From Opitutaceae bacterium (GTDB lineage Bacteria; Verrucomicrobiota; Verrucomicrobiia; Opitutales; Opitutaceae), in contig SXSC01000284.1 of the NCBI GenBank assembly GCA_005792355.1, positions 1-50,769 on the forward strand: a stretch of DNA of 50,769 nucleotides, read 5' to 3'. Position 1 is the stretch's first letter; each line of letters starts with the position of its first letter. Made by a program: the position numbers and the translations under genes. Below are positions 34,101 through 50,769 of this stretch, in pieces. The notes under the pieces were generated by a model. It saw only the letters and a list, made by a program, of their open reading frames with translations. It did no database searches and was not told the origin of the DNA.

Positions 34101-34198
34101 ATGCGAGCTTTCGAGGGAAAATCGACGAAGTTCGTTTTTACTCACGAATGCTTACTCCGGCCGAAGTTCAGAATCTATTCGAGTCGACTGCCAATTAG
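31130..34198 (+). CDS. Large secreted protein with Ig-like, duplicated beta and LamG domains
   Basis: A 1022-aa exported protein. Either ATG 31130 or ATG 31268 starts it; the second gives a compact signal peptide (MATLSLLLSVTSANAQ) and has GGAG in front, while the first adds 46 residues including a second hydrophobic run. After an N-terminal beta region (to about 340, with DSDQNGIPD and NDANGNGIPD calcium-type loops) come two Ig-like domains (about 343-433 and 434-518; SYTVVVSNSSGTVT and YTCTATNSVGTTTS). Two copies of a beta module common in Opitutaceae follow (about 520-661 and 662-800: LLLRAMGPSLSQFGV, LLVRAVGPTLTSFGV). The C-terminus (about 801-1018) is a LamG/concanavalin-like domain ending GKIDEVRFYSRMLTPAEV. 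No anchor is seen. It probably binds a surface or polysaccharide. Confidence 0.8.
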   Translation: MRKAIFPFALGAALPRLNFSIARAGDWAENRACAAITRRSPTGALTMATLSLLLSVTSANAQSKSAQVFVHGKSVQLLPSSPLRVVGFGDVTTYFTTFNGTSGSFLIDSARGGIVSGELRPRTTTAGLYEGAYAQATPLLIVDFGSYAVSLPTADSDQNGIPDAIQFDRDGNFSASGSGFSVPTGLPFSISIRFNRSAGSADGTYTATTQNAAGQANTVSGQYSLLSYQGSVSYTRGSSNTMGVSVTGLFQGGVTLTGSTTFTTANADQLSYAAFTGRDSAGTAYQARAGTLTRSGNTYRGDLVLVDGLPQTSWADFTSYVFVITDLNDANGNGIPDFTDPAAIPPVITTQPRSQSATVGQVVSLSVVATGAPSFQWAKGGTAIQGATSASLSFPSVQLSDSGSYTVVVSNSSGTVTSSAAALTVTAAPAAPTFVVQPFSLTVARGVTAVLVCEVAGSPSPTLQWKRNGITLSGATTRTLLLSPVGSTLAGGYTCTATNSVGTTTSTLATLAILDTTDLGRLVNLSIRTNAGAGAETLITGFSVGGVGAIGSKPLLLRAMGPSLSQFGVPGVLGDPLLTVYSGAVATAMNDDWAGDSQLRAGSANVGAFAFAGDTSKDAAVLAPSVAIGSYTAQISGVEGATGVVLAEIYDATPAASITASTPRLVNVSARAKVGTSSDMLIAGFVIGGSTAKTLLVRAVGPTLTSFGVTGVLLDPKLELYSGTRLLGSSDDWGNDSDIAYAAALVGGFPLASGSKDSAILISLPPGSYTAQVSGVANTTGVGLVELYDVPTPALAPSLGNQLVAYYALNGNTNDSSGNQVSATGAPSVTFSTDRFGRASSAATFGKTGFIDISNRRLLHGATEATISVWFESRMLSSEGGFLVAAGDARAGLDPFYLSIGNSGVLSAEFTDSSLGPSHPNRSIGGNQGLQIPTGQWIHVVVQFRSVGSTTVFELYVDGQLRRQTAYPRSHRIFFDTSMSVQIGCLTSFSDASFRGKIDEVRFYSRMLTPAEVQNLFESTAN

Positions 34199-34396: not shown

Positions 34397-37300
34397 ATGA
34401 CCGCTGTGCCCGCTTCCTTACCGAAACAAGCCCAGCTCGTTCGCGTTCGCACCCGGCACTGGCTCGTGGAGGACGTTTCTCCGTCTCCCTCCGGCACATG
34501 GCTCCGCCTCGCCTGTGTCGACGACGATGCGCAGGGCGAGCAAGTGGAGGTCATCTGGGAGGCCGAACTCGACGGTCAGATCCTTGATGTCGAGGCGTGG
34601 GCCAGAATCGGCCACAAGGGTTTCGACGAGCCCCGGCACTTCGCCGCGTATTTCAATTCCCTCCGCTGGCACTGTGTCACCGCCACAGACCCTAAGCTTT
34701 TTCAGGCGCCCTTTCGCGCCGGCATTCGGATCGACGCCTATCAGCTCGAGCCGCTTCGCAAGGCCCTCCAACTTCCGCGCGTCAACCGCTTCATCGCCGA
34801 CGACGTGGGTCTCGGCAAGACCATCGAGGCTGGCCTCATCGCCTGCGAACTCCTGCTTCGCCGCCGTGTCCGCGACGTCGTCGTCGCTTGCCCGCCATCG
34901 ATGCTCAAACAATGGCAGGATGAACTCGATGCCCGCTTCGGCCTGCGCTTCGAGATTTTCGACCGCGACTACGTGGAGCGTATCCGCCGCGAGCGCGGCT
35001 ATGCCGTCAACCCGTGGAAGACTTTCCCGCGTTTCCTCATCTCGCACCGGTTGCTCATCGACGAGAATTACGCCGCGCCCATGCGCGACTGGCTGGATAA
35101 CATCCGCCCGGGCAGCCTCCTCATCCTCGACGAGGCCCACCATGCCGCACCAGCCAGCGGAGCCAAGTACGCCATCGACTCCAAAATTACCCGCGCCATC
35201 CGTGACCTGGCCCCGCGTTTCGAGCACCGCCTCTTCCTTTCCGCCACCCCGCACAACGGCCACTCCAATAGTTTCAGCGCCCTCCTCGAACTCCTCGACG
35301 ACAAGCGCTTCATGCGCGGCGTTCCCGCCCTGAAGAGCAACCGCGATGCCGTGATGGTCCGCCGCCTCAAGGAGGACGTGCGCATTATCGCCGGTGGTTT
35401 TCCCGTTCGAAAGGTCGTGCAGGTGGACCTCGTCGGTCTTCCCGCCGACGCTCCCGAACTTTCCCTTGCCGATCTGCTCGACGCTTATTTCACCGCGCGG
35501 CGCCAGCGTTTCGCCACCGCGAGCAAGCGCGAGCAAACACAGGGTGTACTGATTCTCTCCACGCTGCAGCAGCGTCTCTTTTCATCGGTCGAGGCCTTTC
35601 ACCGCACGCTTGGTGCCCACCGTCGCGCGATGGAGAAGGTCTGGGCAGGAGAGACCGTCACCGCGCGTTCGGTCCCCACGAATGACCCCTGTCTGTTCAA
35701 TGCTGGCTACGACAGCGACGACGAACGTTCCCAGCTCGACCCAGAGCAGCAGGAAACCGAGGCCGCCGCCGCCCTAGAACGCGCGAGCGGAGTCGTCGTC
35801 GGCGCCATCGCAAGCGCCGACGTATCCCGCGAGCGCAGTCTCATCGCCGAGATGTCGCGCATCGCCGAAAGATTCCGGTTCCAGCCCGACGCCCGCGTTC
35901 GCTGGCTGATCGACTGGCTGCAATCCCACGCCTGTCCCGGTATCCATTCTCACAATTCCGCTGCGACCGCGCCCGGTGCCCCGTGGTCCTCCCTCCGGCT
36001 GATCATCTTCACTGAATACGAGGACACCGCCCGCTATCTGCGGTCCAAGCTAAGCGCCGCCATCGCCGGCACCGACCGCGAAGCCGAGCGCATTGAAGTT
36101 TTCCACGGTCCGACTCCGCCCGATAAGCGAGAGGTCCTGAAGCGCGCCTTCAACGAGCCACCCGATCGCCATCCGCTCCGTATTCTCATCGCCACCGATG
36201 CCGCCCGCGAGGGCCTCAACCTGCAGGCGCATTGTTGGCACTTGTTCCATTTCGACCTCCCCTGGAATCCCTCGCGGCTGGAGCAGCGCAACGGCCGAAT
36301 CGACCGCAAACTCCAGCCCAATGGCGAGGTCTTCTGCCACTACTTCGTCTATACGCAGCGCCCCGAGGATCGCGTCCTCCGCGCCCTTGTGCGCAAAACC
36401 GAGACCATCCGCCTCGAACTCGGCAGTCTCTCCGAGGTTATTGAAAAACGCCTCCGCGCCGGCATTCGCCGCGATGAGGTCGAGGCCGCCGCGGCCGCCA
36501 TCGAGGGTCTGCATGACGACCCCGAGAAGAGCGCCGCCCGTGAGACCGAGTTGGAAGACGCCGCCGCCGAGCGGCGAACCCGCCTCAGCGCCGAGATCGA
36601 CATTCTCACGAAGCGCCTCGACGATGCCCACCGCTGGATCGGGCTCGACGAGGTCCAGCTTCGCGACGCCCTCAGTTGCTCGCTCGACCTGCTCGAAGCC
36701 GAGCCCCTGCGCGAAGCCCCCACGCCCGCCGGCGAGCCCACGCGCTACATCTTCCCCAACCTCCAGGTCCGCAAGGGCAGCGACCCCACGTGGGGGGCCA
36801 CGCTCGACACCCTCCGCACTCCGCCCGAACCCGGCCAGCCGCTCTACGAATGGCGCCGAGAGTCATCGCTCCGCCCGGTCATCTTCAAGGCCCCCGACGG
36901 CTTCGATGGTGACACCGTCCAACTCCATCTCTCGCACCGTGTCGTGCAGCGGCTCCTCGGCCGTTTCCTTGCTCAAGGGTTCGTCTACCACGACCTTTCC
37001 CGGGCCTGCCTGGCTCAATCCTCAGATGCGATACCCCGCGTTGTGCTTCTCGGCCGTCTCTCCATTTTCGGCCACGGTGCGACCCGTCTTCACGAGGAGA
37101 TCATCACTGTCACCGCCCGCTGGAGCGACCCCACGGCCCGCAAGGGACCGCTCGCCCCGTATGCGCGTGATGCCGAATCGAAGACCGCCGCCTTGCTCCA
37201 GGAATCGTTGAAACCCGCCGCCGCCACCCGCCCTATTCCGGCAGCGGTCCAACAGCGCCTGCAAGCCGCCATGGCGCAGGATATCCGCGATCTGCTTCCT

Positions 37301-37654
37301 CACTTGGAGCAGCGCGGCGAAGTCACCCGCCTCGATGCCGAAAAACTTCTCGCCGAGCGCGGGCACATCGAATCCGCCGCCCTCCGCAACACCTTAGAGG
37401 ATCAGCGGCGCCGAGTGCTCGTGAAATTCAGGCAGACCGAGGCCGATCAGCTGTACCTCCCGCTGTCGGGCGAATCAGGCGATGCCACCGCGCGCCGACA
37501 ACGCGCCGCCGACCGCCGCCACTGGGAGCGCTGGCTCGCCAATGTCGACAGTGACCTCGCTCGCGAGCCCCAGCGCATCACTGAGTTTTACCTGACCAAG
37601 TCCTCTCGCCTCGAACCGGTCGGCATTGCCTACCTCTGGCCTGTCACAATCTGA
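34397..37654 (+). CDS. drmD: DISARM SNF2-like helicase DrmD
   Basis: A 1085-aa SF2 ATPase of the SNF2/RapA type, matching DrmD of class 1 DISARM anti-phage systems, in which it works with an adenine methylase and DrmA/B/C against incoming DNA. Motif I DDVGLGKT (135-142), motif II DEAH (245-248), SATPHNG (282-288), ATDAAREGLNLQ (about 599-610) and QRNGRIDR (about 630-637) are all intact. A helical C-terminal half with many Arg/Glu residues follows. ATG 34397 (MTAVPASLPKQAQL) is preferred; the frame is open to TTG 34331. It is the first gene of a rightward operon; the next start is only 19 bases after its stop. About 200 bases upstream should hold the promoter, but no strong boxes are visible. 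Confidence 0.85.
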   Translation: MTAVPASLPKQAQLVRVRTRHWLVEDVSPSPSGTWLRLACVDDDAQGEQVEVIWEAELDGQILDVEAWARIGHKGFDEPRHFAAYFNSLRWHCVTATDPKLFQAPFRAGIRIDAYQLEPLRKALQLPRVNRFIADDVGLGKTIEAGLIACELLLRRRVRDVVVACPPSMLKQWQDELDARFGLRFEIFDRDYVERIRRERGYAVNPWKTFPRFLISHRLLIDENYAAPMRDWLDNIRPGSLLILDEAHHAAPASGAKYAIDSKITRAIRDLAPRFEHRLFLSATPHNGHSNSFSALLELLDDKRFMRGVPALKSNRDAVMVRRLKEDVRIIAGGFPVRKVVQVDLVGLPADAPELSLADLLDAYFTARRQRFATASKREQTQGVLILSTLQQRLFSSVEAFHRTLGAHRRAMEKVWAGETVTARSVPTNDPCLFNAGYDSDDERSQLDPEQQETEAAAALERASGVVVGAIASADVSRERSLIAEMSRIAERFRFQPDARVRWLIDWLQSHACPGIHSHNSAATAPGAPWSSLRLIIFTEYEDTARYLRSKLSAAIAGTDREAERIEVFHGPTPPDKREVLKRAFNEPPDRHPLRILIATDAAREGLNLQAHCWHLFHFDLPWNPSRLEQRNGRIDRKLQPNGEVFCHYFVYTQRPEDRVLRALVRKTETIRLELGSLSEVIEKRLRAGIRRDEVEAAAAAIEGLHDDPEKSAARETELEDAAAERRTRLSAEIDILTKRLDDAHRWIGLDEVQLRDALSCSLDLLEAEPLREAPTPAGEPTRYIFPNLQVRKGSDPTWGATLDTLRTPPEPGQPLYEWRRESSLRPVIFKAPDGFDGDTVQLHLSHRVVQRLLGRFLAQGFVYHDLSRACLAQSSDAIPRVVLLGRLSIFGHGATRLHEEIITVTARWSDPTARKGPLAPYARDAESKTAALLQESLKPAAATRPIPAAVQQRLQAAMAQDIRDLLPHLEQRGEVTRLDAEKLLAERGHIESAALRNTLEDQRRRVLVKFRQTEADQLYLPLSGESGDATARRQRAADRRHWERWLANVDSDLAREPQRITEFYLTKSSRLEPVGIAYLWPVTI

Positions 37655-37673
37655 TCACGCAGTTGCCCCGACC

Positions 37674-40097
37674 ATGCGATACGACCGTCCCGAACAAATT
37701 GCCGAAATCCTGTTTGCCGAGCTATCGCATTTTGGAGTGAACTTTAAACCCTCAGGCAGCACCGGAGTCATTCGCTACAATGAGGTGCTGTTATTAAATG
37801 AGCCGTTCGTTGGTTACGCGGAAGTAACTGCACCAGATGGCAGAGAGGCCTACCTGGTTTGCCGAAATTATACACCTATCGACTTCAGACCAAAGAAACA
37901 CGGTCTCAAATTTGCTAGCTATCTAGCCCCGTTGGGTGCTTTGCTCGCGCAGAGGCCGGGACACTCCACGCGGGTTGTACAACGTACCGTTACGCTCGAC
38001 GCTAAGGCACAGTTCTCTCCGAAGCGCGATCACGATGGATGGGACGCAAGAAACATTCGCATTGGATGGAATAACGAAGAACTCCAGTCCGAGTCACTCA
38101 GAGACTTGATCCGACAACTTCGGTTGCAACGAGAGGCGCCGGGTCAGGTCGCTGTTCTTGCGCAACCGGATGCGCCAATGATCTCGTTCAGTCTTGAGCT
38201 CAGGTCGCGCCGGCCAGTTATACAAGTCACGCAGTTGCCTGATCGGGCGATTCTCGACGATATTCAGGATCCTGTTTTCCGACACTCAATCGCTGGGCCG
38301 ATTTTGATCACCGGGGCACCCGGAACCGGGAAAACTACCGTCCAAATCAAGCGTCTGGCCCAAAAAACCAAATGGGAATTCTTAACCGCGGATGAGCGAA
38401 GTGGTTTGGATGCCTCCTCGTGGGTTGATAACGAAGGTTGGATCTTCTTTACTCCCACCGCTCTTCTTAAGAGCTACCTAAAGGAGGCCCTGGCGAAAGA
38501 ACGTCTCGTAGCGAGCGATACAAGCGTGAGAGTTTGGCGCGACTATCAGGTCGAGCTTCTCCGCCGCGTTCGGTTTCTTCGGGTCTCGGATTCGGATGAC
38601 GCCTTCCGTCGCGCACCAGATGGCATTTCGATTCTCCGCGATCGCAGTAGCGCATTTTCCGTCAAACTCGCGGTTGCTTTTATTAACTGGCTGACCGCTG
38701 AAATCGAAACCCATGTTCGAAACATAATGGAGTTGCCAGAGGACTTTCGCAACCCTCTGGCAGCAATTTCCAATCGAAGAGACCAGTTAGCCCCTAGAAT
38801 CAAAGAGAAACTGGGTTACGCGCATCTTTTTCGGAAGATCCCCGCTCTATACGATAGATTCCGTAAAGAACCCGACATCCGCCGGCAATACTACCGCGAA
38901 GGATTCGACCTGGATCTCGCGCTAAAGGAGATGCGAATCGACGCACAAGAGATGTCGATTCTGTTGTACGCAGCCCTTCGATGGGTTCGCACTACTTGGT
39001 TGGACTTTAATGCCGACATTTCGAATCGCAATGCCGGAGGACCAAGCTACCTCATCCAGGACCAACGGACAATTGTTGCAATCGATGAAGCGTCCGATTT
39101 TTCGGCCGTTGAGATTGCTGCCATGTCGCTTTTGGCAGATCCACGAAAGGCCTCTGTCTCATTGAGCGGTGATCTGATGCAGCGTCTTACTACGACAGGT
39201 CTTCGCGCATGGGTCGAGTTGGAGGAACTTGGGATAGACGCACCTCGCTTCGACTTACGACGCGCCTACCGGCAAACGGATCGACTCACTCGTCTAGCCG
39301 GGAAACTCTATTCCGCGTTTTCGGGCGATACGAAGGCTCCTACAGATTCTGTTAACCCTGCGGATAACGACCCGCCTGTATTAGTTCAGTCTGCTGCGAC
39401 AACCGGAGAGGCTGCGGTGTGGATCGGAAAGCGGATTCGGGAGATCTTTGACCTTAGCGGCGGTCGCCTGCCGTCCATCGGCGTCTTGATGCCGGCTGAG
39501 GAAGATGTGGTTCCGTTCACAAAACTCCTCGGGGAAGCTCTCTTCGATGCATCTATCGATGTTGAGGGCAGCTTGGGAGGCCAGAGTCTTGGAAATACAA
39601 ATAAGGTACGCGTTTTTTGCGTGGATCATATTAAAGGGCTAGAGTTCGAGTCGGTCTTCTTCTGCGACATCGACATCATGGCCGAGAAGCAGGGAGAGCT
39701 GATTGATAAGCTCGTTTATGTGGGTCTTAGCCGGGCACGGAGTTTTCTTGGCATGACCTACCGGGTTTCTTTCCCGAAGAGATTGGCGATTATTCAGCGT
39801 GACCTGCTGTTTGCGGACCGTTTTGCCCCTGAGCAAACTCTGCAACCATGGCGGAGCTATCTTGACGAAGACCTAGTCGGCCAGATTGGCGAACCAGACC
39901 AGGCGCTGCTCGATAAACATTTTGCATTCTATTGGAACTTGGCTTGCGGGAAGATCGCGGCAGTCACCCCTGCGCAAAAGGATTTCGTTCGGTTTTCGAA
40001 GTCGGTCAGTACCGCCGGCAAACTCACTCCCCGAAACGAACATCAACGAGCATTCAAGGTGTTTCTGGAACAGCGGGCGTTGCGAGCCGCTGACTAA
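37674..40097 (+). CDS. UvrD-like SF1 helicase embedded in the DISARM operon
   Basis: An 807-aa superfamily 1 helicase. A poorly recognised N-terminal domain (about 1-200) is followed by Walker A GAPGTGKTT (about 214-222), a large insert, a Walker B of the form VAIDEASDFS (about 468-477), the motif III region SLSGDLMQRL, VDHIKGLEFESVFF (motif V) and LVYVGLSRARSF (motif VI, about 679-690). All ATPase motifs look usable. ATG 37674 follows the drmD stop by 19 bases; the next gene follows by 15 bases, so it is inside the operon. It is visibly poorer in GC than drmD and drmMI (for example many ATT, TTA and AAA codons), suggesting separate acquisition. This gene is not part of the textbook class 1 DISARM set. 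Confidence 0.8.
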   Translation: MRYDRPEQIAEILFAELSHFGVNFKPSGSTGVIRYNEVLLLNEPFVGYAEVTAPDGREAYLVCRNYTPIDFRPKKHGLKFASYLAPLGALLAQRPGHSTRVVQRTVTLDAKAQFSPKRDHDGWDARNIRIGWNNEELQSESLRDLIRQLRLQREAPGQVAVLAQPDAPMISFSLELRSRRPVIQVTQLPDRAILDDIQDPVFRHSIAGPILITGAPGTGKTTVQIKRLAQKTKWEFLTADERSGLDASSWVDNEGWIFFTPTALLKSYLKEALAKERLVASDTSVRVWRDYQVELLRRVRFLRVSDSDDAFRRAPDGISILRDRSSAFSVKLAVAFINWLTAEIETHVRNIMELPEDFRNPLAAISNRRDQLAPRIKEKLGYAHLFRKIPALYDRFRKEPDIRRQYYREGFDLDLALKEMRIDAQEMSILLYAALRWVRTTWLDFNADISNRNAGGPSYLIQDQRTIVAIDEASDFSAVEIAAMSLLADPRKASVSLSGDLMQRLTTTGLRAWVELEELGIDAPRFDLRRAYRQTDRLTRLAGKLYSAFSGDTKAPTDSVNPADNDPPVLVQSAATTGEAAVWIGKRIREIFDLSGGRLPSIGVLMPAEEDVVPFTKLLGEALFDASIDVEGSLGGQSLGNTNKVRVFCVDHIKGLEFESVFFCDIDIMAEKQGELIDKLVYVGLSRARSFLGMTYRVSFPKRLAIIQRDLLFADRFAPEQTLQPWRSYLDEDLVGQIGEPDQALLDKHFAFYWNLACGKIAAVTPAQKDFVRFSKSVSTAGKLTPRNEHQRAFKVFLEQRALRAAD

Positions 40098-42356
40098 TCA
40101 CTTCCCGCTGAAATGTCCGCCCCCTCCTCCAAAGACCCCATCCTAGCCGATCATCTGGCTTGGCTTGGCTATGTCCAGCCGGAGGGTCTCGTCGTCTCGG
40201 CGCCGGCGTTGAAGGATGCGCAGACGGTCATCGACCGAGCCCAACTCGGCGACCTGCAGCGCCGTTTCGCCGACCACGTCACGGATCTTCGCCTCGCTGA
40301 CAGCGACACGGCGGACACTGCCGCCGGCATCGCCGACGTCCCGCGCTTTCTTGCGGATTTCCTCGGTTGGCCCACCGACCTCCTTGTGGGCTGGGATGCC
40401 GCCCGCCCGCTTCCGCCCGACCTGACCGTCTCGCTCCCCGAGTTCGCCGAGGCCCTCTCACCCACCTACGCCGTCGTCCAGCCGCGCCCCAAGGACGGCG
40501 CGCCGCCGTGGCTGCTGCTGATTCAAGCGCATGCGCCGACCACTGATCTCGACAAACCCACCGCCGGTCACGATCGCGGTTGGCACGCTTCGCCCGCGAA
40601 GAAGTTCGAGCGCCTCCTCCGCGAGACGCAAGTGCCCATCGGCCTCCTCACCAATGGCGTCGCCTTCCGTCTCATCTACGCTCCGCCCAAGGAAAACTCC
40701 GGTGCGCTCACTTTCCCGGCCGGCGCGATGTCGGAAATATCCGGCCGGCTCATCCTTGGCGCGTTTCACCTGCTGCTCAACTCGTGGACGCTCTTCAACG
40801 CCCCGAGCGATGCCCGCCTGCCGGCCCTCCTCCAGCGCAGCCGCGACTATCAGGCCAGTGTTTCTGAAATCCTCGCTGAGCAGGTCCTCCACGCCCTCTA
40901 CGAACTCCTGCGCGGATTCGAGGCCGCGGACGGTCGCGCGCAGCAAAAACTCCTGCGCGAACTCGCCGCCAGTCATCCTGCCGACATCTACGGTGGCCTC
41001 GTCACCGTGCTGCTGCGCCTGGTGTTCACGCTGTTCGCGGAAGATCGCGGCCTGATGCCGGGCGGCGCTGTCTATGTGCGGAATTATGCCGTGCACGGAT
41101 TGTTCGAGCGCTTGCGCGCCGACGCCGAGCGTTACCCCGACACCATGGATCACCGCTTCGGTGCGTGGGCGCAGCTCCTGGCGCTCTTTCGCCTCATCCA
41201 CGGCGGCTGCGAACACCCCGAGTTGAAGATGCCCGCCCGCGCCGGCCACCTCTTCGACCCCGACCGCTACCCGTTCCTCGAAGGCAGAAAGACGCGCTAC
41301 GATCCCATCGGCGCGCTCCCACTCGTCAGCGACGGCACACTCCATCGCATTCTGGAGAAACTCTGCATCCTCGAGGGTGAACGCGTCAGCTACCGCACGC
41401 TTGACGTGGAAGAAATCGGCTCGGTCTACCAGACAATCATGGGTTTCGCCGTCGAGCCGGCGGCTGGACTCTCAGTCGCGCTCAAGGGCAAGCGGAAGAA
41501 TGGCGGGGTGCCCGCCTCTCCCGTCATCAGCCTGGAGCAACTTCTCGACGTCCCGGCCAAGGACCGCGCCAAGTGGCTTAAGGAAAACGCCGACACCCAA
41601 CTCTCCGGCGAAGCGGACAAACTCCTTAAGACTGCCGGCACCGTGGACGACCTCCTCGTCGCCCTGGGAAAGCGCATCGATATCCACGCTACGCCGACAC
41701 TGGTGGCGCAGGGCGGACTCGTGCTCCAACCCACCGACGAACGCCGCCGCAGCGGCTCCCACTACACCCCGCGTTCGTTCACCGAGCCCATCGTCCGCAA
41801 AACCCTCGAACCGATCCTCAAGCGTTTCGGGGAAAAACCGACGCCCGCCCAGATTCTCGACCTCAAGATCGCCGACATCGCTGTCGGCAGTGCCGCCTTC
41901 CTCGTCGAAACCTGCCGCCAACTCGCTGACCAGCTCGTCCGCTCCTGGCGGGTGCATGGCGGACGCCCTTTGCTGCCGCCTGATGAGACCGAGGAATTGC
42001 TTGCCATGCGCACCATCGCGCAACGCAGCCTCTACGGCGTGGACCGTAATCCCATGGCGGTGGACCTTGCCAAGCTGTCTCTCTGGCTCGCCACCCTGGC
42101 CAAGGACCATCCCTTCACGTTCCTCGACCACTCGATCCGCTGCGGCGATTCTCTCGTAGGCCTCACTGCGAAGCAGATCGCCGCCTTCACCTGGGGACCG
42201 ACCGCCGGGGTACAGCGGCTCCTTGGGCAGGACCGACTGGAGAAACGCATCGCCGCCGCCACCGCCTATCGGCGCGACATCCTTGAAGCCGGTGATCTGC
42301 TGCTGCCCTCACTCAAGACGCAAAAACTCACGTTGGCCGACCAGGCCTTGGATGAA

Positions 42357-42366
42357 TCCGTTTTGT
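42357..42366 (+). other. Frameshift site in drmMI
   Basis: The sequence TCCGTTTTGT holds a run of four T. Reading codons GAA TCC GTT TTG continues the wrong frame; one more T gives GTT TTT GTC and restores the family-like protein downstream. Confidence 0.7.
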
Positions 42367-42619
42367 CGGCGACCTCGCCATTGCGGCATTCTTCGGTGCG
42401 GAGAAAGACAAGGCCCGCCAGCAACTGCGCGACGACTTGTTGCAGCGTTATACCGCCACGGCGGCCGACGTCTCTAGGAGAATGGAGCTTAAGAAACCTG
42501 TCGCCACGCTGCGCAGAGGCCAATTCCCGGTCGCTCCGTTCCACTGGGAGATTGAATTCCCGGAAGTGTTCGACCGCATGGATCCCGGCTTTGACGGCAT
42601 CGTCGGCAATCCGCCGTTT

Positions 42620-43690
42620 CTAGGCGGCAGCAGAATTTCATCGATAGGGGGACAGTCCTATTTGGATTGGGTTAAGAAGGTTCACGAAGAATCTCACGGC
42701 AATGCTGACCTCGTCGCACATTTCTTCAGGCAGGCTTTCAATTTACTGAGGCCGAGTGCCAGCTTTGGACTTATTGCTACAAACACGATTGGTCAGGGCG
42801 ATACCCGCGCTACTGGACTGCGCTGGATTTGCACGCATGGCGGAACCATCTACGCTGCACGCAAACGCTTTAGATGGCCCGGACAGGCAGCGGTAGTGGT
42901 CAGTGTTGTCTGGATCATCAAGGGCCGCATCGGCGGAGAGCTCGACCTTGATGGAAACGCTGTGAAGGTCATTACTGCATACCTATTTCACGCAGGAGGT
43001 CATGAAAATCCGCGTGTGCTCAAATCGAACGGTGGGCGAACTTCCCTCGGCGTAAAAACGTACGGACAAGGGTTTGTATTCGATGACGCAGACCCAGCCG
43101 CCAATCCCTTGGCTGAAATAGATTCGCTGACCACTTCCAACCCCCGCAACGCCGAGCGCATATTCCCATACATTGGGGGCGAGGAGGTAAACGACCATCC
43201 AGAACACAAGCACTCACGTTACGTAATCAGCTTCGAGGATTTCCCCCTCCAGCGCTCGCACGTTGGTTCATCATGGAGCGGAGCAACTGGCGACCAAGAG
43301 GAAGCATGGCTCAGAACGGGAATCGTCCCACATGACTACCCAAAACCCGTTGCCGCCGATTGGCCGGACCTCTTACGAATCGTCGAACAGAAGGTGAAGC
43401 CTGAAAGGCAACTCAACAATCGGGAAAGCTACCGGCGATACTGGTGGCAATTCGCTGAGAAACGTCCTGAGCAAGCTGCATCGCTCGCCGGCCTGAAACG
43501 AACGATAGTGGTCGCGCGAGTGGGACAGCACGTCTCATTTACGTTCGTCTCTCCACGCAGTGTATTTTCAGAGCAACTTGTCGTTTGCGCGCTCGAGGCG
43601 GCCTCTACGTTCTGTTGTTTGCAGTCTCGTCCCCACGAAATCTGGGCTCGGTTTTCTTCGTCCTCGATGAAGGATGACTTGCGCTACACC
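42620..43690 (+). other. AT-richer target-recognition segment of drmMI
   Basis: Codon use changes from strongly GC-ending to mixed (for example ATTGCTACAAACACG, GTTAAGAAGGTT) right after the NPPF motif and returns to GC-ending at about 43690. The segment corresponds to the sequence-specificity part of adenine methylases of this type. The boundaries are estimates by eye. Confidence 0.5.
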
Positions 43691-44415
43691 ACCACCGATT
43701 GCTTCGAGACCTTTCCATTCCCAGCCGGGTTCGAGACGAACGCCGTGCTGGAGGCGGCGGGGCGGGAGTATTACGAGTTCCGCGCGGCGCTCATGCAGGA
43801 CCTCTGGCTCGGTCTCACGGAAATCTACAACCTCTTTCACGCACCCGATGACGAGGCCCTGGCGCGCTTAGAAGCCCTCTACCGCAAACGCGCCGCCACC
43901 CCCGATTGGCGCACCGCCGAGGCCGTCCCCGCCGACCGCTCGCCGCTGTCGCTTTACACCACCCCCGCCGCCGCGCTCGCCGCAGTCCGCCGCCTGCGCG
44001 AACTGCACGCCGCCATGGACGCCGCCGTCCTCACCGTTTACGGCTGGACCGACCTCCTCCCCAAATGCACCTGCGAGTTCCTCCTCGACTACGAAGACGA
44101 AGAGGATGACGCCGCCGAAACCACCGGCCGCCGAAAGAAGAAGCCCTGGCGCTACCGCTGGCCCGACGAGACCCGCGACGAAGTCCTCGCCCGCCTCCTG
44201 AAACTCAACGCCGAGCGGGCGGAGGAAGAACGCCTCGCGGGTTTGGCGGCTGGCGCCGCCAAACCCAAAACCAAACTCACGGCCGGCGTGAAACGCTTCC
44301 GCAAGCCCAAGTCTGCTGGCATCGCTCCAATCCAACCCGAACAACTGCCACCGGTACAGGGGGACCTATTTGAATAGCACTCACTCCATCCAGCTCGCAA
44401 AATATCCTACACGCC

Positions 44416-47400
44416 ATGGCTCTCTACGTTTATATCACTGAGTCCTGCAAACAGGCCGCGCTCCGGCACAGCCTCCAGGATGAACTCGAACGCTTTCGGG
44501 ATCGGATTGAGGCGGTCCAGGATGTCCGGCTCTTCGACCCGTTTCCTCCACCGTACCTGGTAAAGAAGAAATTTGGGAGCAGACAGGGGCGCCTCGTCGC
44601 GTCGATGAAGCTGGATGTCAGAGGCCACTCGGTCGTCGTGTTTCACGCCGTGATGATCCGCGGTGATGCGGCCTATGAAGATCATTTCAGCAAGGACCCG
44701 CTCGCCTACGGTAAGCGCAATTTCGATCCCCAGTTCTCCGACGTCGATTTAGAGGGGTTTGTCGCGCAGCGCACCGCGGTGGCACCGCCGCCGGAAAAGC
44801 AGCAGCCTACGACTACGGAGTACGGATACTTGCACCAGGTATTCGGAGCGAAGGGAGACTCGGACGGCGAACAGGTGGTTTGCGAGTCGATCGACTGGGT
44901 AAATCGAATCGGCGAGGCCCCCTTCAAGAACCGGCTCGAAAGCATTTTCCAGATCCTCACCCAGATCGATGGAGATGAAATTCCGGGCGGCAGAGAAAGC
45001 AGCACGCCCACCTCTGTCGGAGTGTCGGTGGTCAGTCGCTCGTTCCCGGAGCACAACATCCGGCTGCTCGTCAGTCCGAAGAACGGAGGTCCCGGTGCCG
45101 ACGAACTCAAGTTGAGCGATGCCGCACGCGATGTGCTTGCCGCGGAGCGCCCGGGTCGGGAAATGATCCTACAGGCCTCGCGACGGGCTTACCCGAATCT
45201 GCTGCTGGCCGATCTGGATTTGTGGTCCGAACTCCAGCGGGACAGACACGCCAACCTCGCCCTCTCGCCAGAAGAAACCGATGTCTTGAATGCGGCACGA
45301 CGTACCGAGGGTGGATTTCCTCTCTTCATCAACGGACGGGCAGGGAGCGGCAAAACCACGCTGCTACAGTACCTGTTCGCCGAGTTCATGTTCTTTCATT
45401 TGAGCAGTGACGAGCGAGCGGTATCTCCAGTGTACTTCACCTGCAACTCAGAACTCCTTTCCCAATCGCGACGGATGGTGGAGAAGCTCCTCCGCTGCAA
45501 TGCGCAGTGGTGGGATCGCGACAATCGCGCAGAACTGGTGGAGAATTTCTCCGACCAGCTGGACGGGGCGTTCAAGGAATTCCATGTGCATCTCTACTCT
45601 CTCCTAGCGCCAGGTGAGCAGGCCGAACGGTTCACGAGGGGAAAGTACGTTTCCTTTTCGTCCTTCAAGCGGCTCTGGCACACACGATTCGGCCGGGAGC
45701 CTGCCGCCCTCCGCGAGCATGGTCCCGACATCTCCTGGCATGTAATTCGCAGCTATATCAAGGGGCTGACACCGGAGGAACTGACGGATCCGGAGGAATA
45801 CCAGCAGCTCGATCAGAAGCAGATCACGGTTACGCAAAGAACCTTCGAGGTGGTTTTCAACAAGGTCTGGACTCGGTGGTATCAGCCGAAATGCGACGAC
45901 GAGCTGTATTGGGATGATCAGGATCTGGCCCGATATTTGATTTCGGAAAACCGCATCCGCCCGATGTATTCGGCGGTGTTCTGTGACGAGGCACAGGACT
46001 TTACCCGGGTGGAACTGGAGTTGCTGCTGCGTTCGTCGGTCTATTCCGAGCGAAAGATCGAGCCGACCGACATTGCGAGAGTGCCCTTTGTCTTTGCCGG
46101 CGATCAGTTTCAGACCTTGAACCCAACCGGATTCCGCTGGGACTCGATTCGAGCGTCGTTCGTGGAGAAATTCATCCTTTCCCTCGATCCGGGGCGGCGT
46201 TCTCGACTGAGCGACCTGAATTTCCGGGAACTGACACTGAATTATCGCTCTTCCCGGACGATTGTTCGTTTCAGCAACTTTGTTCAGGCACTGCGCGTCC
46301 GGCTGTTTGGTCTGACGGGCGTGCGGCCGCAGCTTCCCTGGGATCGGGAAAAGACAGCAGCCCCCGTGATCGGCGTCCCGCGTGAAAAGGCGGATTTCTG
46401 GGAGAGACTGAAACGGGAGCGTGACATCGCGATCATCGTGCCCTGCGGGGATGGGGAGGAACTTGAGTATATTGCGAAAGACCCGGTCCTCTCCAGCAAG
46501 ATTCGGGTGGAGGATAAGGTGCCCGATGCCCTTGTGCTCAGTTCCTCCCGGGCCAAGGGTCTCGAATTCAATCGAGTGGTGGTCTACGGCTTTGGCGAGG
46601 CGGACGAGGCGAAAGGCGGACTCCTTGAACCCCTGCGCGGAAAGGGTTCGTATGCGGACGACCCCGACAAGTCGCTTCCCTACCAGTACTTTATCAACCG
46701 GCTTTACGTCGCGGTTAGCCGGCCAAAGCGGCGGTTGTTCATTGTGGACTCAGCCGACGCCTTCAAAAACTTCTGGACCTTTGCAAACGATGAGGGGTTC
46801 GAGAGCGCCATCGTAGCTGGAATCAAGGAAGGAGAACAGCTGTGGCGTTCCGCCATCGGTAGGCTCGAGTCGGGAGCCGTCGATGATTTGTCGGCGGACC
46901 GTACTGAGGATCCCAAGCAACACGCAGATGCACTCGCGCGGCAGGGCCGGGCAAACGGTGATCCGCTGATGCTGCGCTACGCGGCCGCGTCCTATCGGAA
47001 TCTGAACGACCTCATGGAGGCGGACCGGTGCAAGGCCGAAGCGCTGGTATTGGAACAGAACTTTTTGGAGGCCGCACGGGTTTTCCTTTTCTGCAAACTT
47101 GTTGATGACGCCGTCAGCGCGTTCTGGCGCGCGGGCCGCGACGGCGGCTGGAAGGAGATCCTCGCGACGGCTGAGCAACACCCAGGGGTCAACACGAAGC
47201 TGGAGTTTGCTTTTTCGCAATTGATTGCCGGTCCCGGCGGGATTGACCAGGCGATCAAAGCGTTTGCACGACTTGCGGAGGCGGTGGCGACTCCCGAGCG
47301 ACTGCCTCAGATCGCTGGCGTGTCGGCATGGGTCAACGGAGTGCGGGCCGCTTTAGAAAAACTCCACGCGATCAAGGCGGAAGAAGTGGAATGGGGGCAA

Positions 47401-48861
47401 CTGGGTGGCCTGCTGGAGAAGGTTTCCCGTGCGACAACGCTGGTGTCTCCCGCTGCTCAGGCGTGGGTGCAGTTCAGGGCGGGAGCCATGTCAAAAGCAG
47501 CGGTGCTCTGGGAGAAATGCAAGGACACGACGGGCAGGGACTACAAGACAGCCAAAGCCTACTCGACGCCGTTTCCAGATAAACTGGCTCCGATGGTTGA
47601 ACTGGAGAAATTTGCCGAGGCGGTACGTGAATGCGCAGAAAATCCGACGGTCCAGATTCCGGCCGGTTTGGCTCCTTTCGCCGTGCGTGCCCACGTGCAG
47701 CTGGGATTGCTCAAGGAAGCCCTACATTACTCGCGGCATGGCAAATCGATCGAACTCGTCTGGCAGGTGATTGGGGCCACGAACGAGAAAAGCGAAGTCA
47801 GAGAGCGGGCGTTTGGCGTACTATTCGCCATTGCGGCTGAACATTCAGATTCAAACTTGTTCAGCAGCTACGCCGAACGCACGCACTTCGGCGCCTTCCG
47901 GCCAAACGCGAATCTCCAAAAGTGGATAGAAGGGCAGCGCCCGTTTCTCGACGAAGCCTGGATGCGAGGGGTTGCAAGGAACCGTGCGATTGCCGAACTC
48001 ACGTGGGACGACAGGAAGGGCAAGATCAATCAGCGGCCGATGGCCGAGTTCCTGAAGAAAACGTTTTTCCCATCGGGTCGACCCACTCTGTCGGCCAATC
48101 GACTCGAAGAGTTGGGCGCCGCTACCGAGTTGTTGGGAAATCGATCGGAAGCGCTGTTCTTTTACGAGTGGGCTCGATCCCAAGAATCGGGTGAGCCTCT
48201 CACCCCCCGACGGGCCGCGGAACGCTGGATTGCCTGCAAGGAACGACGGGCGCGCTGGGAAGAAGGACGGGGTGACGACCGCCAAGCTCGCCTCCATCGA
48301 GCTGAGGCCAACGAAGCACGAATCGCGCTCGGCGGTGAGGCGATAACCGCGGCATTTCCCGAGTATCCGGATTGCGGGTCGATAGATGCGTTGATCGACG
48401 AATACCTCAGCGGACCAATCACGTCGCGGTCGCCGTTTACGAGCCAAAGCACACCAGCACCTGTCGTGCCTGCTTCCTCAGAACCTGCCCGTCAGACGCC
48501 TGCGCCGCTGGCCCCGGCCGTTCAGCCGCCACCGGCAACCCCGCGGATTCCTGCCAAGACCGAGTTCGTTCTCGACGGGTTGAAAGTTGAGTACTTTCGA
48601 GGGCCTGCAAAGCTGGTGCTTCGCAGCGAGACGGACGGAGCAACCGCGAGCTTTCGAGTTGGAGTGAAGTCGGCACAGGGCATCGATGTTGAAGTCGTGG
48701 AACGTCCGGTTGGGAGCGGGCACTGGGTGGTCGACGCTTGGTCCGCTGAGATCGACCTCACTGGGGCCCGCGGCCCCTCCGTCAGATTTCGGAATTCTGC
48801 GATGAACGTCCAGTTTGAAGCAGAATCCCATGCTGGGGATTTGACTGCACCAAGCTCATGA
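44416..48861 (+). CDS. Giant UvrD-like SF1 helicase with helical-repeat and beta C-terminal regions
   Basis: A 1481-aa protein with all SF1 motifs: Walker A GRAGSGKTT (307-315), DEAQD (524-528), FAGDQFQTLNP (motif III, about 560-570), LNYRSS (IV), SSSRAKGLEFNRVVVYGF (V) and LYVAVSRPKRRLFIVD (VI, about 762-777). Residues 1-300 form an N-terminal domain without a known match. About 800-1335 are helical and TPR-like (ADALARQGRANGDPLMLRYA, ANRLEELGAATELLGNRSEA). A Pro/Ala-rich linker (about 1336-1382) leads to a final 100-residue beta domain. The helicase-plus-helical-array plan recalls TRANK1-type UvrD proteins (inference). It starts 38 bases after drmMI and its stop overlaps the drmA start (ATGA). 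It is not in the standard DISARM gene list. Confidence 0.82.
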   Translation: MALYVYITESCKQAALRHSLQDELERFRDRIEAVQDVRLFDPFPPPYLVKKKFGSRQGRLVASMKLDVRGHSVVVFHAVMIRGDAAYEDHFSKDPLAYGKRNFDPQFSDVDLEGFVAQRTAVAPPPEKQQPTTTEYGYLHQVFGAKGDSDGEQVVCESIDWVNRIGEAPFKNRLESIFQILTQIDGDEIPGGRESSTPTSVGVSVVSRSFPEHNIRLLVSPKNGGPGADELKLSDAARDVLAAERPGREMILQASRRAYPNLLLADLDLWSELQRDRHANLALSPEETDVLNAARRTEGGFPLFINGRAGSGKTTLLQYLFAEFMFFHLSSDERAVSPVYFTCNSELLSQSRRMVEKLLRCNAQWWDRDNRAELVENFSDQLDGAFKEFHVHLYSLLAPGEQAERFTRGKYVSFSSFKRLWHTRFGREPAALREHGPDISWHVIRSYIKGLTPEELTDPEEYQQLDQKQITVTQRTFEVVFNKVWTRWYQPKCDDELYWDDQDLARYLISENRIRPMYSAVFCDEAQDFTRVELELLLRSSVYSERKIEPTDIARVPFVFAGDQFQTLNPTGFRWDSIRASFVEKFILSLDPGRRSRLSDLNFRELTLNYRSSRTIVRFSNFVQALRVRLFGLTGVRPQLPWDREKTAAPVIGVPREKADFWERLKRERDIAIIVPCGDGEELEYIAKDPVLSSKIRVEDKVPDALVLSSSRAKGLEFNRVVVYGFGEADEAKGGLLEPLRGKGSYADDPDKSLPYQYFINRLYVAVSRPKRRLFIVDSADAFKNFWTFANDEGFESAIVAGIKEGEQLWRSAIGRLESGAVDDLSADRTEDPKQHADALARQGRANGDPLMLRYAAASYRNLNDLMEADRCKAEALVLEQNFLEAARVFLFCKLVDDAVSAFWRAGRDGGWKEILATAEQHPGVNTKLEFAFSQLIAGPGGIDQAIKAFARLAEAVATPERLPQIAGVSAWVNGVRAALEKLHAIKAEEVEWGQLGGLLEKVSRATTLVSPAAQAWVQFRAGAMSKAAVLWEKCKDTTGRDYKTAKAYSTPFPDKLAPMVELEKFAEAVRECAENPTVQIPAGLAPFAVRAHVQLGLLKEALHYSRHGKSIELVWQVIGATNEKSEVRERAFGVLFAIAAEHSDSNLFSSYAERTHFGAFRPNANLQKWIEGQRPFLDEAWMRGVARNRAIAELTWDDRKGKINQRPMAEFLKKTFFPSGRPTLSANRLEELGAATELLGNRSEALFFYEWARSQESGEPLTPRRAAERWIACKERRARWEEGRGDDRQARLHRAEANEARIALGGEAITAAFPEYPDCGSIDALIDEYLSGPITSRSPFTSQSTPAPVVPASSEPARQTPAPLAPAVQPPPATPRIPAKTEFVLDGLKVEYFRGPAKLVLRSETDGATASFRVGVKSAQGIDVEVVERPVGSGHWVVDAWSAEIDLTGARGPSVRFRNSAMNVQFEAESHAGDLTAPSS

Positions 48862-50672
48862 CTTCTCCCGAATCCCGCGCCAAACTCCTCGAAGCCCTCC
48901 AGCTCGATCTGGTGGGACCGTGGCCGGGTCATGCCTTCGATCGTGAACTGCTGCCCGAGAACCCGACGCGATGGTATCTGACCGGCTATCTCGTGCCCGA
49001 GGCGGCGCCCGTCGAGCATCGTACAGATGCCGAGGCGAAGGAAGAGGTGGATGCGGCGGGCGAAGGCGGCGGGACCGATGATTCCTCCGTTCCCGACAAG
49101 GAAGCTGCTCCGCCGAGTCTGCTACCCAGCTCGATGGGCCTGAGCGTGCTGATCCCGACCGGAACCAAAGTGATGAAGGTCGATGTCACGTGGGGGACCT
49201 ACCTTTGGGAAGATCCGACCAAGGAAGAGCCCGAACCCGAGGACCAAGGGCTGGGCGTGAAGCTGGTCGAACCATCGGCACTGTACCCGACCACAGACGA
49301 CAAGTCCGCGGCGGTCGCGGAAGACGGTGAGGCCAATCCCCAAGGCGCGAAGGCCGTTCCGCAAAAGGGGTTTCGTCGCTCGCCGCACGCCGAAGTCTTC
49401 ACGCTGCCGCTCCCGGCACCGAATGGCCGCCCGGAGTCGCGGGCCGTGCCAAACAGCGACGGGCTGCGCGTCGTGGCGACCTTGCGCCCCGTCGCCCCCG
49501 ATGCGCACGGACGAATCCCGGCCGGGACGCGGGCGCTGTGCGTATTCCTCGTTAATGGACGCCCGGCCGGCGAGAAGGCGTATCAGGGCAATGCCTTTCA
49601 GGCCCGGCTGCGGCTGGGCTGTGCCGAAGGGTTTGTTCCCCGGCCGGATTTGCGCGGCAGCGACAGCCTGGCCTCGATGGATATCAAGGTCGCCGACCTG
49701 CAATACCGACGGGCCTTTGACTTTGTGGCGGGCATCGGGTGCTCTGCGGAGCCGGTCGATTCCGTCGAGGGGCAGCCGTGCCACCAGGTTCAAACCTGCT
49801 GGATGCCGGGCGCGGCGGTGGAGTTTATCGGCCACTTGGAGGCCGCAGCGCTGCCGGGGGTGGAACTGCAAATGGAAAAACTCGCCGGCATCAAGGACCT
49901 CGCGGATGCCCAAGTGAAACTACAGCCGCTGGTGGCCCATTATCGGGCTTGGATTACCGCGCAGGCCGCTATCATTCCGGCCGAACTCGCGGGCGATGCG
50001 GAGCGGGCCAAAACCGCGAAGGAGTTGATCCGCCGCGCACGTCTGGCGGCAGACCGCATGGAGGCGGGTATTCAGCTCCTCGGTACCGCGGATGTTCACG
50101 AAGCGTTTTGCACCGCAAACCGCGCCATGGCACGGCAAGCCCGCCAGCGCGAAATGCAGCGCACCGGGAAGCCGGCGGCGCAGGCCGAAGCCCCGGCGTG
50201 GCGGGCGTTTCAGCTCGGGTTCATTCTGCTCAACCTGCGCGGTCTGTCGGATCCGGCGAGCGCCGACCGGGAATTGGTCGACCTGCTCTTCTTCCCCACT
50301 GGCGGCGGCAAGACGGAGGCGTACCTCGCGCTCGCTGCGTTCTCCATCGTGCTGCGACGGCTGCGCCATCCGGGACGCCGGGGCGCCGGGGTGGACGTGC
50401 TCATGCGGTACACGCTGCGGCTGCTCACGCTCGACCAGCTCGGCCGCGCCACCGCACTGATTTGCGCCTTGGAACTGGAGCGACAGCAACGCGCCAAGGC
50501 CGGCGACAAATCGCTCGGCGACTGGCCGTTTGAGATCGGCCTGTGGGTGGGCTTGGCCGCGACGCCCAACCGCATGGGTGGCCCCGGTGACAAAGGCCCG
50601 GGCGCAGAAAATACGGCGTACCGTCGGTTGCGTGTAGAACGCCAGTTCATCTTCGACAGCGGCGCCAACTAG
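48858..50672 (+). CDS. drmA: DISARM helicase DrmA, truncated
   Basis: The first 590 residues match DrmA of DISARM: ELLPENPTRWYLTGYLVPE near the N-terminus, VDVTWGTYLWE, the motif FFPTGGGKTEAYLALAAF with Walker A (about 479-489), DVLMRYTLRLLTLDQLGRA, and the LGDWPFEIGLWVGLAATPNRMG region. DrmA normally continues for several hundred more residues with a Cys-rich segment and the second RecA-like domain; here the frame ends at 50672 after about 20 unrelated-looking residues. No other frame of the last 100 bases continues the family. So the gene is cut by an insertion or rearrangement near 50630-50680. The ATG overlaps the stop of the giant helicase (ATGA), giving translational coupling. The remaining fragment keeps Walker A but lacks the later helicase motifs. 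Confidence 0.8.
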   Translation: MTSPESRAKLLEALQLDLVGPWPGHAFDRELLPENPTRWYLTGYLVPEAAPVEHRTDAEAKEEVDAAGEGGGTDDSSVPDKEAAPPSLLPSSMGLSVLIPTGTKVMKVDVTWGTYLWEDPTKEEPEPEDQGLGVKLVEPSALYPTTDDKSAAVAEDGEANPQGAKAVPQKGFRRSPHAEVFTLPLPAPNGRPESRAVPNSDGLRVVATLRPVAPDAHGRIPAGTRALCVFLVNGRPAGEKAYQGNAFQARLRLGCAEGFVPRPDLRGSDSLASMDIKVADLQYRRAFDFVAGIGCSAEPVDSVEGQPCHQVQTCWMPGAAVEFIGHLEAAALPGVELQMEKLAGIKDLADAQVKLQPLVAHYRAWITAQAAIIPAELAGDAERAKTAKELIRRARLAADRMEAGIQLLGTADVHEAFCTANRAMARQARQREMQRTGKPAAQAEAPAWRAFQLGFILLNLRGLSDPASADRELVDLLFFPTGGGKTEAYLALAAFSIVLRRLRHPGRRGAGVDVLMRYTLRLLTLDQLGRATALICALELERQQRAKAGDKSLGDWPFEIGLWVGLAATPNRMGGPGDKGPGAENTAYRRLRVERQFIFDSGAN

Positions 50673-50769
50673 AACCCGACACGTAAGTATCTGGTTTTAC
50701 GTGGGCGCCGGCCTGCGTGAGCGGTAGTGCTTGGGGCCTTTACGCAGACCCCATGATCACCCCGGCTCA
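50673..50769. other. Window end after truncated drmA
   Basis: A 7-base inverted repeat (CACGTAA 50680-50686, TTACGTG 50697-50703) lies 7 bases after the drmA stop. A possible start codon is at 50753 (ATGATCACC) close to the edge. This could be the left end of an insertion element that cut drmA, but too little sequence is present to name it. Confidence 0.35.

What the first reader, a model, noticed from the sequence alone, without database searches (positions are those of the whole stretch)
34397..50672. Class 1 DISARM-like operon with two extra SF1 helicases built in
Seen: five tightly spaced, co-directional genes with gaps of 19, 15 and 38 bases and a 4-base overlap: drmD-like, UvrD-like helicase, adenine methylase, 1481-aa UvrD-like helicase, drmA-like. 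Known: class 1 DISARM is described as drmD, drmMI, drmA, drmB and drmC. Inference: the two SF1 helicases sit between, not beside, the core genes and are translationally linked to them, so they may be functional parts of a DISARM variant with three or four motor proteins. They could help process or block foreign DNA, or replace a missing subunit.
Basis: partly seen in the sequence, partly recalled or inferred. Interest (0 to 1): 0.88.

Follow-up and report, generated by a model that had tools for sequence, protein, structure and literature searches.

The report
DISARM operon carrying two helicase inserts
A bacterial anti-phage operon of a known type (DISARM) carries two extra DNA-helicase genes in two gaps where its relatives carry other, often defence-like genes or nothing, so the gaps look like swappable slots; in this assembly the operon itself is broken.

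Summary
The gene order and spacings are as described. The core is class 1 DISARM (DrmD 1034 bits, cut-off 610; DrmMI; N-terminal half of DrmA), and both extra proteins carry SF1 helicase motifs.

The helicases do not look like conserved subunits. In the 8 loci with 67-79% identical DrmD, the stretches held show neither; in the same gaps they carry unrelated genes (Fic, AbiU/AIPR, Schlafen-like, BrxD-like, RES/HEPN, a ResIII helicase) or nothing. In my sample, window included, slot 1 is filled in 6 of 20 readable loci and slot 2 in 10 of 13. helA has low G+C. Of 13 readable helA-family places, 5 lie in operons with an SNF2 helicase and a DNA methyltransferase (this DISARM, an ARMADA-I-like operon, three type III R-M operons).

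Best reading: variable accessory slots of class 1 DISARM, here holding two SF1 motors, probably co-expressed auxiliary or back-up effectors. New variant of a known kind.

The parts
34397..37654 (+). drmD, SNF2-like helicase of class 1 DISARM (longest frame starts at TTG 34331)
   Evidence: NF038317 1034 bits over a 610 cut-off; PDLC02621 1018 bits; 67-79% identical to 8 Verrucomicrobiota loci
37674..40097 (+). helA, SF1 (UvrD/HelD/GajB-like) helicase in slot 1; alternative start TTG 37626 overlaps drmD
   Evidence: SF1 motifs; G+C 0.531 and GC3 0.550 against 0.648-0.668 and 0.768-0.795 in drmD, drmMI N-part and drmA; relatives
40113..42623 (+). drmMI, N-terminal part (adenine methyltransferase, MmeI/type IIG-like); the DrmMI-matching frame breaks at about 42294-42490
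   Evidence: PDLC02638 730 bits; N6_Mtase
42437..44377 (+). drmMI, C-terminal part (end of methyltransferase domain and target recognition domain) in another frame
   Evidence: PDLC02643 555 bits, profile 836-1250; MmeI_TRD
44416..48861 (+). helB, 1481-aa SF1 helicase in slot 2: conserved N-terminal region of unknown fold (1-~290), SF1 core (~300-790), long C-terminal region
   Evidence: SF1 motifs; relative in genome G047, 45% over the first 820 residues, 40% over 1049
48858..50632 (+). drmA, first ~591 residues only, cut by an insertion
   Evidence: NF038325 profile 2-572 of 1165; no other match to this profile in the genome
50633..50769 (.). end of a high-copy insertion sequence; the contig ends inside it
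   Evidence: 18 further near-identical and 4 diverged copies in the genome; flanks differ in the copies printed. That it is an insertion sequence is inferred; no transposase was seen

Best explanation
This is a class 1 DISARM operon (drmD-drmMI-drmA; drmB/drmC not found in the assembly) whose two internal gene junctions act as accessory slots. In related operons the slots are empty or hold unrelated genes, many resembling known defence or toxin genes; here slot 1 holds helA and slot 2 holds helB, two SF1 helicases with open frames. The core would methylate host DNA (DrmMI) and attack or block unmethylated incoming DNA (DrmD, DrmAB). The slot genes are co-transcribed with the core (inferred from spacing) and most likely add a second line: helA as an auxiliary motor that works with methylation-guarded SNF2 systems, helB as a self-contained helicase-effector. 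Shown: identities, motifs, slot variability in the sample, recurrence of helA beside SNF2 plus methyltransferase genes. Inferred: co-transcription, direction of action, functional cooperation. In this assembly the system is probably inactive (frame break in drmMI, insertion in drmA, no DrmB-type domain found).
For: Core identity. Slot variability: among 20 loci with DrmD over 40% identical and a readable drmD-drmMI junction, 6 carry co-directional genes there (window, L070, L071, L074, L075, L076); among 13 with a readable drmMI-drmA junction, 10 do (window, L072, L074, L075, L065, L055, L056, L086, L057, L089); without the window 5 of 19 and 9 of 12. L087, L090 and L092 have neither slot filled. 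Cargo: Fic, AIPR/AbiU, AlbA-Schlafen, ResIII helicase, BrxC/D-like ATPases, deoxyribosyltransferase/TIR-like (weak), RES-HEPN with LmuB-like (weak), AAA_15/PtuA/AriA-type ATPase plus AriB/DUF4435-like (weak), RmrA-like. Cargo differs between operons 79% identical in DrmD (window and L074). helA has low GC3, 0.55. helA family in operons with SNF2 plus methyltransferase in 5 of 13 readable places.
Against: helB's G+C is only mildly different (0.591; drmMI C-part 0.590), so its late arrival is not shown. The slot counts come from a sample chosen by DrmD similarity, not from all DISARM loci; of 30 plasmid hits I opened 11, one of them without annotation. Only 3 of the 8 closest loci reach drmA. 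helA and helB were each seen in DISARM once, so a chance insertion in a decaying locus is possible. The assembly is fragmented with an estimated contamination of 5.06%. No function was tested. Several cargo genes match their families weakly, and some have no match at all (the 186-204 aa family, L070's 186-aa gene, L074's 500-aa gene). In a second DISARM group one slot gene is stable, so slot genes can become fixed.
Confidence: 0.72

Rival explanations
1. One reading: a DISARM variant with three or four motors in which helA and helB are integral subunits, as ArmD is in ARMADA type II.
For: Tight spacing and a 4-b overlap. ArmD, a UvrD-family helicase, is essential in ARMADA II (PMC12458937 section 6). 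The helicase half of ArmD aligns with helA (25% over 211 aa, E 7e-6; hhalign 97%) and weakly with helB (hhalign 72%). helA family lies beside SNF2 plus methyltransferase in three system types.
Against: Neither gene was seen in the 8 closest DISARM loci (3 of which reach drmA) or in 30 DrmD-bearing plasmid records. helA relatives also stand alone. Three DISARM operons with drmA and drmB have both junctions empty. helB gave no match to ArmD's N-terminal domain, and in ARMADA II the SF1 gene follows the YprA gene instead of preceding it.
Confidence: 0.15
2. Guardian model: slot genes, including helA/helB, are back-up toxic effectors that fire when a phage inhibits DISARM, as PrrC does for EcoprrI.
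For: Many slot genes in relatives resemble toxins or abortive-infection proteins: Fic, AbiU/AIPR, RES-HEPN, AriA/AriB-like, TIR-like, RmrA-like. Precedent: prrC embedded in a type IC locus and PARIS sensing an anti-restriction protein (PMC12707154 passages).
Against: No toxin domain was recognised in helA or helB. A single-sequence fold of helB 1-300 failed (pLDDT 33) and a low-power profile comparison with RelE-type sequences gave nothing.
Confidence: 0.3
3. Decay product: unrelated mobile helicase genes inserted into a dying operon, without function there.
For: drmMI frame break, drmA cut by an insertion, no DrmB-type domain or drmA remainder in the assembly; low G+C of helA.
Against: Both SF1 frames are open over 823 and 1481 codons with their motifs and sit precisely between genes. 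The drmMI break may be an assembly error and the insertion may be recent.
Confidence: 0.2

Closest known systems
Class 1 DISARM (drmD, drmMI, drmA, drmB, drmC)
   Same: drmD over the curated cut-off, drmMI and drmA N-half in the usual order and strand; examples with drmA and drmB opened on plasmids.
   Different: Two SF1 helicases in the two internal junctions; drmMI frame-broken, drmA truncated, drmB/drmC not found.
ARMADA type II (armA-D; E. coli ATCC 8739)
   Same: SNF2 helicase, PglX-like methyltransferase, YprA-like helicase and a UvrD-family SF1 helicase in one operon; ArmD is essential (PMC12458937 section 6).
   Different: The window's DrmA matches the DISARM profile; ArmC matches DruE best. 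ArmD follows ArmC. helB's N-terminal region does not match ArmD's. There are two SF1 genes in the window.
ARMADA type I-like operon of a Croceicoccus marinus plasmid (L085/L108; the name is my inference)
   Same: helA-family gene after a YprA-like (MZB, DruE-like), a DpdE/DrmD-like SNF2 and a DrmMI-like methyltransferase gene, with two short genes between.
   Different: Different backbone; helA at the end, followed by an HNH nuclease gene.
SNF2-DUF4391-helA-type III R-M operon (Aeromonas, Raoultella plasmids; IMG/VR contig L103)
   Same: helA-family gene between an SNF2 helicase and a DNA methyltransferase, as in the window.
   Different: Type III methyltransferase and restriction subunits; no YprA-like helicase annotated there.
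Embedded guardian genes of restriction loci (prrC in EcoprrI; BrxU beside BREX)
   Same: Extra defence genes lodged inside or beside a restriction operon (PMC12707154 passages).
   Different: No toxin domain recognised in helA or helB.

Membership tests
Class 1 DISARM | drmD (SNF2-like) | tested here: met
   NF038317 1034 bits, cut-off 610
Class 1 DISARM | drmMI adenine methyltransferase | tested here: inconclusive
   Both parts match DrmMI (730 and 555 bits), but in two frames; true frameshift or assembly error not decidable
Class 1 DISARM | drmA helicase | tested here: inconclusive
   NF038325 417 bits over 2-572 of 1165, cut-off 950; gene cut by an insertion
Class 1 DISARM | drmB (DUF1998/MZB protein) | tested here: not met
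   No MZB match in the held assembly; a DrmB model itself was not run. The contig ends in drmA and the assembly is fragmented, so this counts against a complete system here, not against the class of the parts
Class 1 DISARM | drmC (PLD nuclease) | tested here: inconclusive
   PLD-domain matches exist on other contigs, none on this one; reported dispensable and often missing (PMC9142583 passages)
SF1 helicases (helA, helB) | Motifs I, II, V and VI in order | tested here: met
   (motif names recalled)
ARMADA type II | YprA helicase with fused DUF1998, followed by a RelE-UvrD gene | tested here: not met
   DrmA is of DISARM type; helB precedes it; no RelE match for helB's N-terminus (weak test)
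ArmD family | RelE-like N-terminal domain on a UvrD helicase | tested here: inconclusive
   helB N-terminus: hhalign probability 0.2 with a two-row profile, fold at pLDDT 33; helA matches ArmD only in the helicase region
Class 1 DISARM | Anti-phage activity | not testable with these tools
   Needs an intact homologue at the bench

The most novel reading that the evidence does not exclude
Class 1 DISARM is a modular chassis with two fixed internal docking positions for interchangeable second-line modules (abortive-infection, PARIS-like, Lamassu-like, BREX-like or helicase modules). helA defines a plug-in SF1 motor family shared by DISARM, ARMADA type I and SNF2-linked type III restriction-modification.
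Probability: 0.35. Interest if true: 0.7.

Novelty: new variant of a known kind. Interest (0 to 1): 0.5.

Why it matters
If the two junctions are true docking slots, DISARM operons become a place to find new defence genes systematically: whatever sits between drmD and drmMI or between drmMI and drmA is a candidate partner or guardian. It might account for the 'auxiliary genes' mentioned for DISARM (PMC9142583 passage), and it makes a testable claim that helA-type SF1 helicases cooperate with methylation-guarded SNF2 systems in general.

Tried and rejected
Profile searches for helB: no NCBIfam match, only weak GajB and UvrD_C_2 matches. PDB sequence search: helB nothing at E 0.01; helA only HelD over 36 residues; helB 1-300 one match at 1.9e-5 over 25 residues to a C-type lectin, judged chance, and one at 0.86. 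AlphaFold of helB 1-300 without an alignment failed (pLDDT 33), so no fold search was made. The RelE idea for helB's N-terminus, raised by the ARMADA paper and by eye, was tested with a two-row profile against ArmD's N-terminus and two RelE/ParE proteins: no match; power is low, so it stays open. Viral contigs: no helB relative; a first helA scan found none, the profile scan one. Phages: no helA match. A guess that ARMADA lies at one tRNA-Phe of E. coli ATCC 8739 was wrong; the second was right.

Papers: 'DISARM drmD UvrD' 0; 'DISARM drmA drmD helicase' 5; 'ARMADA DISARM antiphage' 3; 'DISARM embedded accessory genes BREX PARIS' 1, a general R-M review; 'DISARM drmMI operon accessory', any two, 25 of 10,041 listed, mostly off topic; 'nested within, defence systems, DISARM, operon' 1; 'DISARM slot operon cargo' 0; 'DISARM Verrucomicrobi defense systems' 5. 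Except for PMC12458937 (sections 5, 6 and figure legends whole, other passages), PMC9142583, PMC12707154 (passages) and PMC11980606 (outline, passages), I saw only titles and abstract openings. None of what I saw describes SF1 helicases in DISARM or variable slots. Most subscription papers are not held, and the original DISARM paper was not read.

Considered and rejected: that G295's helA relative lies in a DISARM locus (no match to the DISARM proteins in the 20 kb around it; other methyltransferase types were not tested there); that helA is HelD (only the P-loop region matches).
Full report
WHAT IS THERE. The window is the whole contig C247 of a fragmented assembly (8.4 Mb, 416 contigs, completeness 98, contamination 5.06). 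Its last 16 kb hold drmD (34397-37654), helA (37674-40097), drmMI (40113-44377 in two frames), helB (44416-48861) and the start of drmA (48858 on), all on the + strand with gaps of 19, 15 and 38 b and a 4-b overlap. DrmD scores 1034 bits against the curated DISARM DrmD model (cut-off 610), DrmMI 730 and 555 bits for its two parts in PADLOC, and DrmA 417 bits over the first half of its model. helA and helB match Pfam UvrD models only below cut-off; Viral_helicase1, an SF1 model, is just over its cut-off for helA. Both carry SF1 motifs I, II, V and VI in order (motif names recalled), conserved in 10 helA-family proteins and in helB's nearest relative.

TWO LESIONS. drmMI: the N-terminal frame matches the DrmMI profile PDLC02643 to position 761, the C-terminal frame from 836 on, and the two overlap out of frame. 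Relatives L072, L073, L074, L075 and L065 have one frame of 1401-1578 aa. An assembly error cannot be excluded. drmA: from 50633 the sequence is the end of a repeat (begins TGTAGAACGCC) with 18 further copies at 98-100% and 4 diverged ones in the genome (40 of 58 candidates scored). The 12 of 22 copies whose contig length was seen all lie within 2 bases of a contig end, with differing flanks in those printed. I infer an insertion sequence; no transposase was seen. The native drmA stops near residue 591, about 110 residues past the start of motif I (PTGGGKT at 480), and no other match to the DrmA model exists in the assembly. No MZB/DUF1998 domain, the mark of DrmB, was found. As assembled, this operon cannot make a complete DrmAB.

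THE TWO GAPS ARE VARIABLE. None has helA or helB in the stretch held. Slot 1 (drmD-drmMI) is visible in all 8: L070 two genes (204 and 186 aa), L071 a Fic protein, L074 198 aa plus an AIPR/AbiU-like protein, L075 186 aa, L076 an AlbA-Schlafen-like protein; L072, L073 and L077 nothing. The 186-204 aa protein is one family in three loci. Slot 2 (drmMI-drmA) is visible in 3: L072 a 1096-aa ResIII helicase, L074 a weakly deoxyribosyltransferase/TIR-like protein plus 500 aa without a match, L075 a weakly LmuB-like protein plus RES-HEPN. L073 has four genes after drmMI, of which three are BrxC/D-like, before the locus ends. L070, L071 and L076 end with the contig in drmMI, and L077 shows no drmA. 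Genome G307 (L065, DrmD 52% identical) has nothing in slot 1 and a weakly LmuB-like protein in slot 2.

On plasmids, 30 records carry DrmD at E 1e-60 or better; I opened 11, one without annotation (H28). Both junctions are closed in Calothrix, Sphingomonas and Paracoccus. Slot 2 holds an AAA_15/PtuA/AriA-type ATPase plus a weakly AriB/DUF4435-like protein in Nostoc UHCC 0926 and a pair of the same lengths, by annotation only, in Nostoc carneum. It holds an RmrA-like gene plus a ~171-aa gene in Acidibrevibacterium, a similarly annotated pair and a PLD gene in Methylocystis, and MqsA- and SecB-annotated genes behind an ISAs1 copy in Thiodictyon. Synechococcus (drmA not within the stretch) and Bradyrhizobium (insertions after drmMI, no drmA annotated) count for slot 1 only. 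In all, slot 1 has co-directional extra genes in 6 of 20 readable loci; the two Nostoc plasmids have only opposite-strand genes there. Slot 2 has them in 10 of 13. The window is counted in both; without it the counts are 5 of 19 and 9 of 12. None of the 30 DrmD-bearing plasmid records is among the 10 with a helA match or the 5 with a helB match.

A second, more distant DISARM-like group (DrmD 30-37%: L058, L060, L061, L062, L066) also has genes between drmMI and drmA in 5 of 5. In four of them one is a 62-72% identical protein of 624-636 aa, whose L058 member is restriction-enzyme-like, so in that group one slot gene has become stable. Other fetched DrmD loci were left out of the counts: L059, L063, L064, L069 and L035 end or lose the operon before drmA, and L067 and L068 have no gene matching the drmA queries.

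RARITY. In 387 genomes sampled from the phylum, DrmD is over cut-off in 14, helA-family in 2 and helB in 3, the window's genome included each time; one helB match is a 28% match to the helicase core only. Only the window's genome has them together in one operon. G047 has a 45% helB relative on one contig and a below-cut-off SNF2 match on another, without a match to other DISARM proteins on either stretch; G004 has DrmD over cut-off and the weak helB match on different contigs. In 220 genomes of the same family, helB was found in no other and helA in one other, a fragment on a 3.2-kb contig.

WHERE helA LIVES ELSEWHERE. I looked at 13 readable places: window, G295, 10 plasmid hits (one a shortened gene next to an IS6 copy) and one viral contig; the short G435 contig is left out. 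Five are inside operons with an SNF2 helicase and a DNA methyltransferase: this DISARM; SNF2-DUF4391-helA-MTase III-REase III in Aeromonas, Raoultella and IMG/VR contig L103; and, in Croceicoccus, a YprA-like helicase with an MZB domain, a DpdE/DrmD-like SNF2, a DrmMI-like methyltransferase, helA and HNH. This last order fits ARMADA type I as described in PMC12458937 (section 5); the name is my inference. The other eight stand alone or near nucleases or other defence genes. For G295 and the unannotated Azospirillum record this rests on finding no match to my reference proteins. In the tree the window's helA pairs with stand-alone G295 (0.997), not with the type III or ARMADA-type copies. The associations therefore look like separate events, though with few sequences.

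HOW IT LIKELY WORKS. Reported for DISARM: methylation marks self; DrmAB binds 5'-overhang DNA, and its ATPase is stimulated by unmethylated DNA (PMC9142583, passages). Tight spacing suggests that slot genes are transcribed with the core (inferred). The kinds of gene found in the slots suggest second-line functions. An SF1 helicase is essential in the related ARMADA II (PMC12458937 section 6), which shows that such a motor can work with this type of core. I therefore favour co-expressed auxiliary or back-up effectors over core subunits. helB has a conserved N-terminal region of unknown fold and a long C-terminal region, consistent with an effector that carries its own sensing or interaction parts; this is inference.

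COMPARISON AND NOVELTY. The core belongs to class 1 DISARM, but drmB fails the test in this assembly, so I file the parts and not a complete system. It is not ARMADA. Nothing I saw in the papers returned (mostly titles and abstract openings) describes the variable slots; DISARM 'auxiliary genes' are mentioned, and genes embedded in restriction loci are known in general. Verdict: new variant of a known kind; interest 0.5, resting on the slots more than on the two helicases.

Noticed in passing
50633-50769: End of a repeat, probably an insertion sequence, with 18 further near-identical and 4 diverged copies in the genome; it seems to break many contigs. Family not determined.
   Followed up: partly
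31130-34198: 1022-aa protein with two Ig-like stretches and a Laminin_G_3 domain, co-directional and 132 b before the longest drmD frame; probably unrelated to the operon.
   Followed up: no
L078, L080, L103: Recurrent operon SNF2 helicase-DUF4391-SF1 helicase-type III methyltransferase-type III restriction subunit on Aeromonas and Raoultella plasmids and a viral contig; in Aeromonas two more genes lie before the last one.
   Followed up: partly
L085:1-11864 and L108:1-7085: ARMADA type I-like operon on a Croceicoccus plasmid that ends with a helA-family gene and an HNH nuclease gene.
   Followed up: partly
L056:12786-14713, L086:22563-24490: PARIS-like pair (AAA_15/PtuA/AriA-type ATPase plus weakly AriB/DUF4435-like protein) between drmMI and drmA of a Nostoc plasmid DISARM operon; a pair of the same lengths in a second Nostoc plasmid, by annotation only.
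   Followed up: partly
L058:7993-9903, L061:9049-10932, L066:6791-8674, L060:12036-13910: A 624-636 aa gene, 62-72% identical, restriction-enzyme-like in the one member tested (L058), between drmMI and drmA in a second Verrucomicrobiota DISARM group.
   Followed up: partly
L070:6773-7387, L074:12092-12688, L075:4287-4847: A 186-204 aa protein family of unknown function recurs directly after drmD.
   Followed up: no
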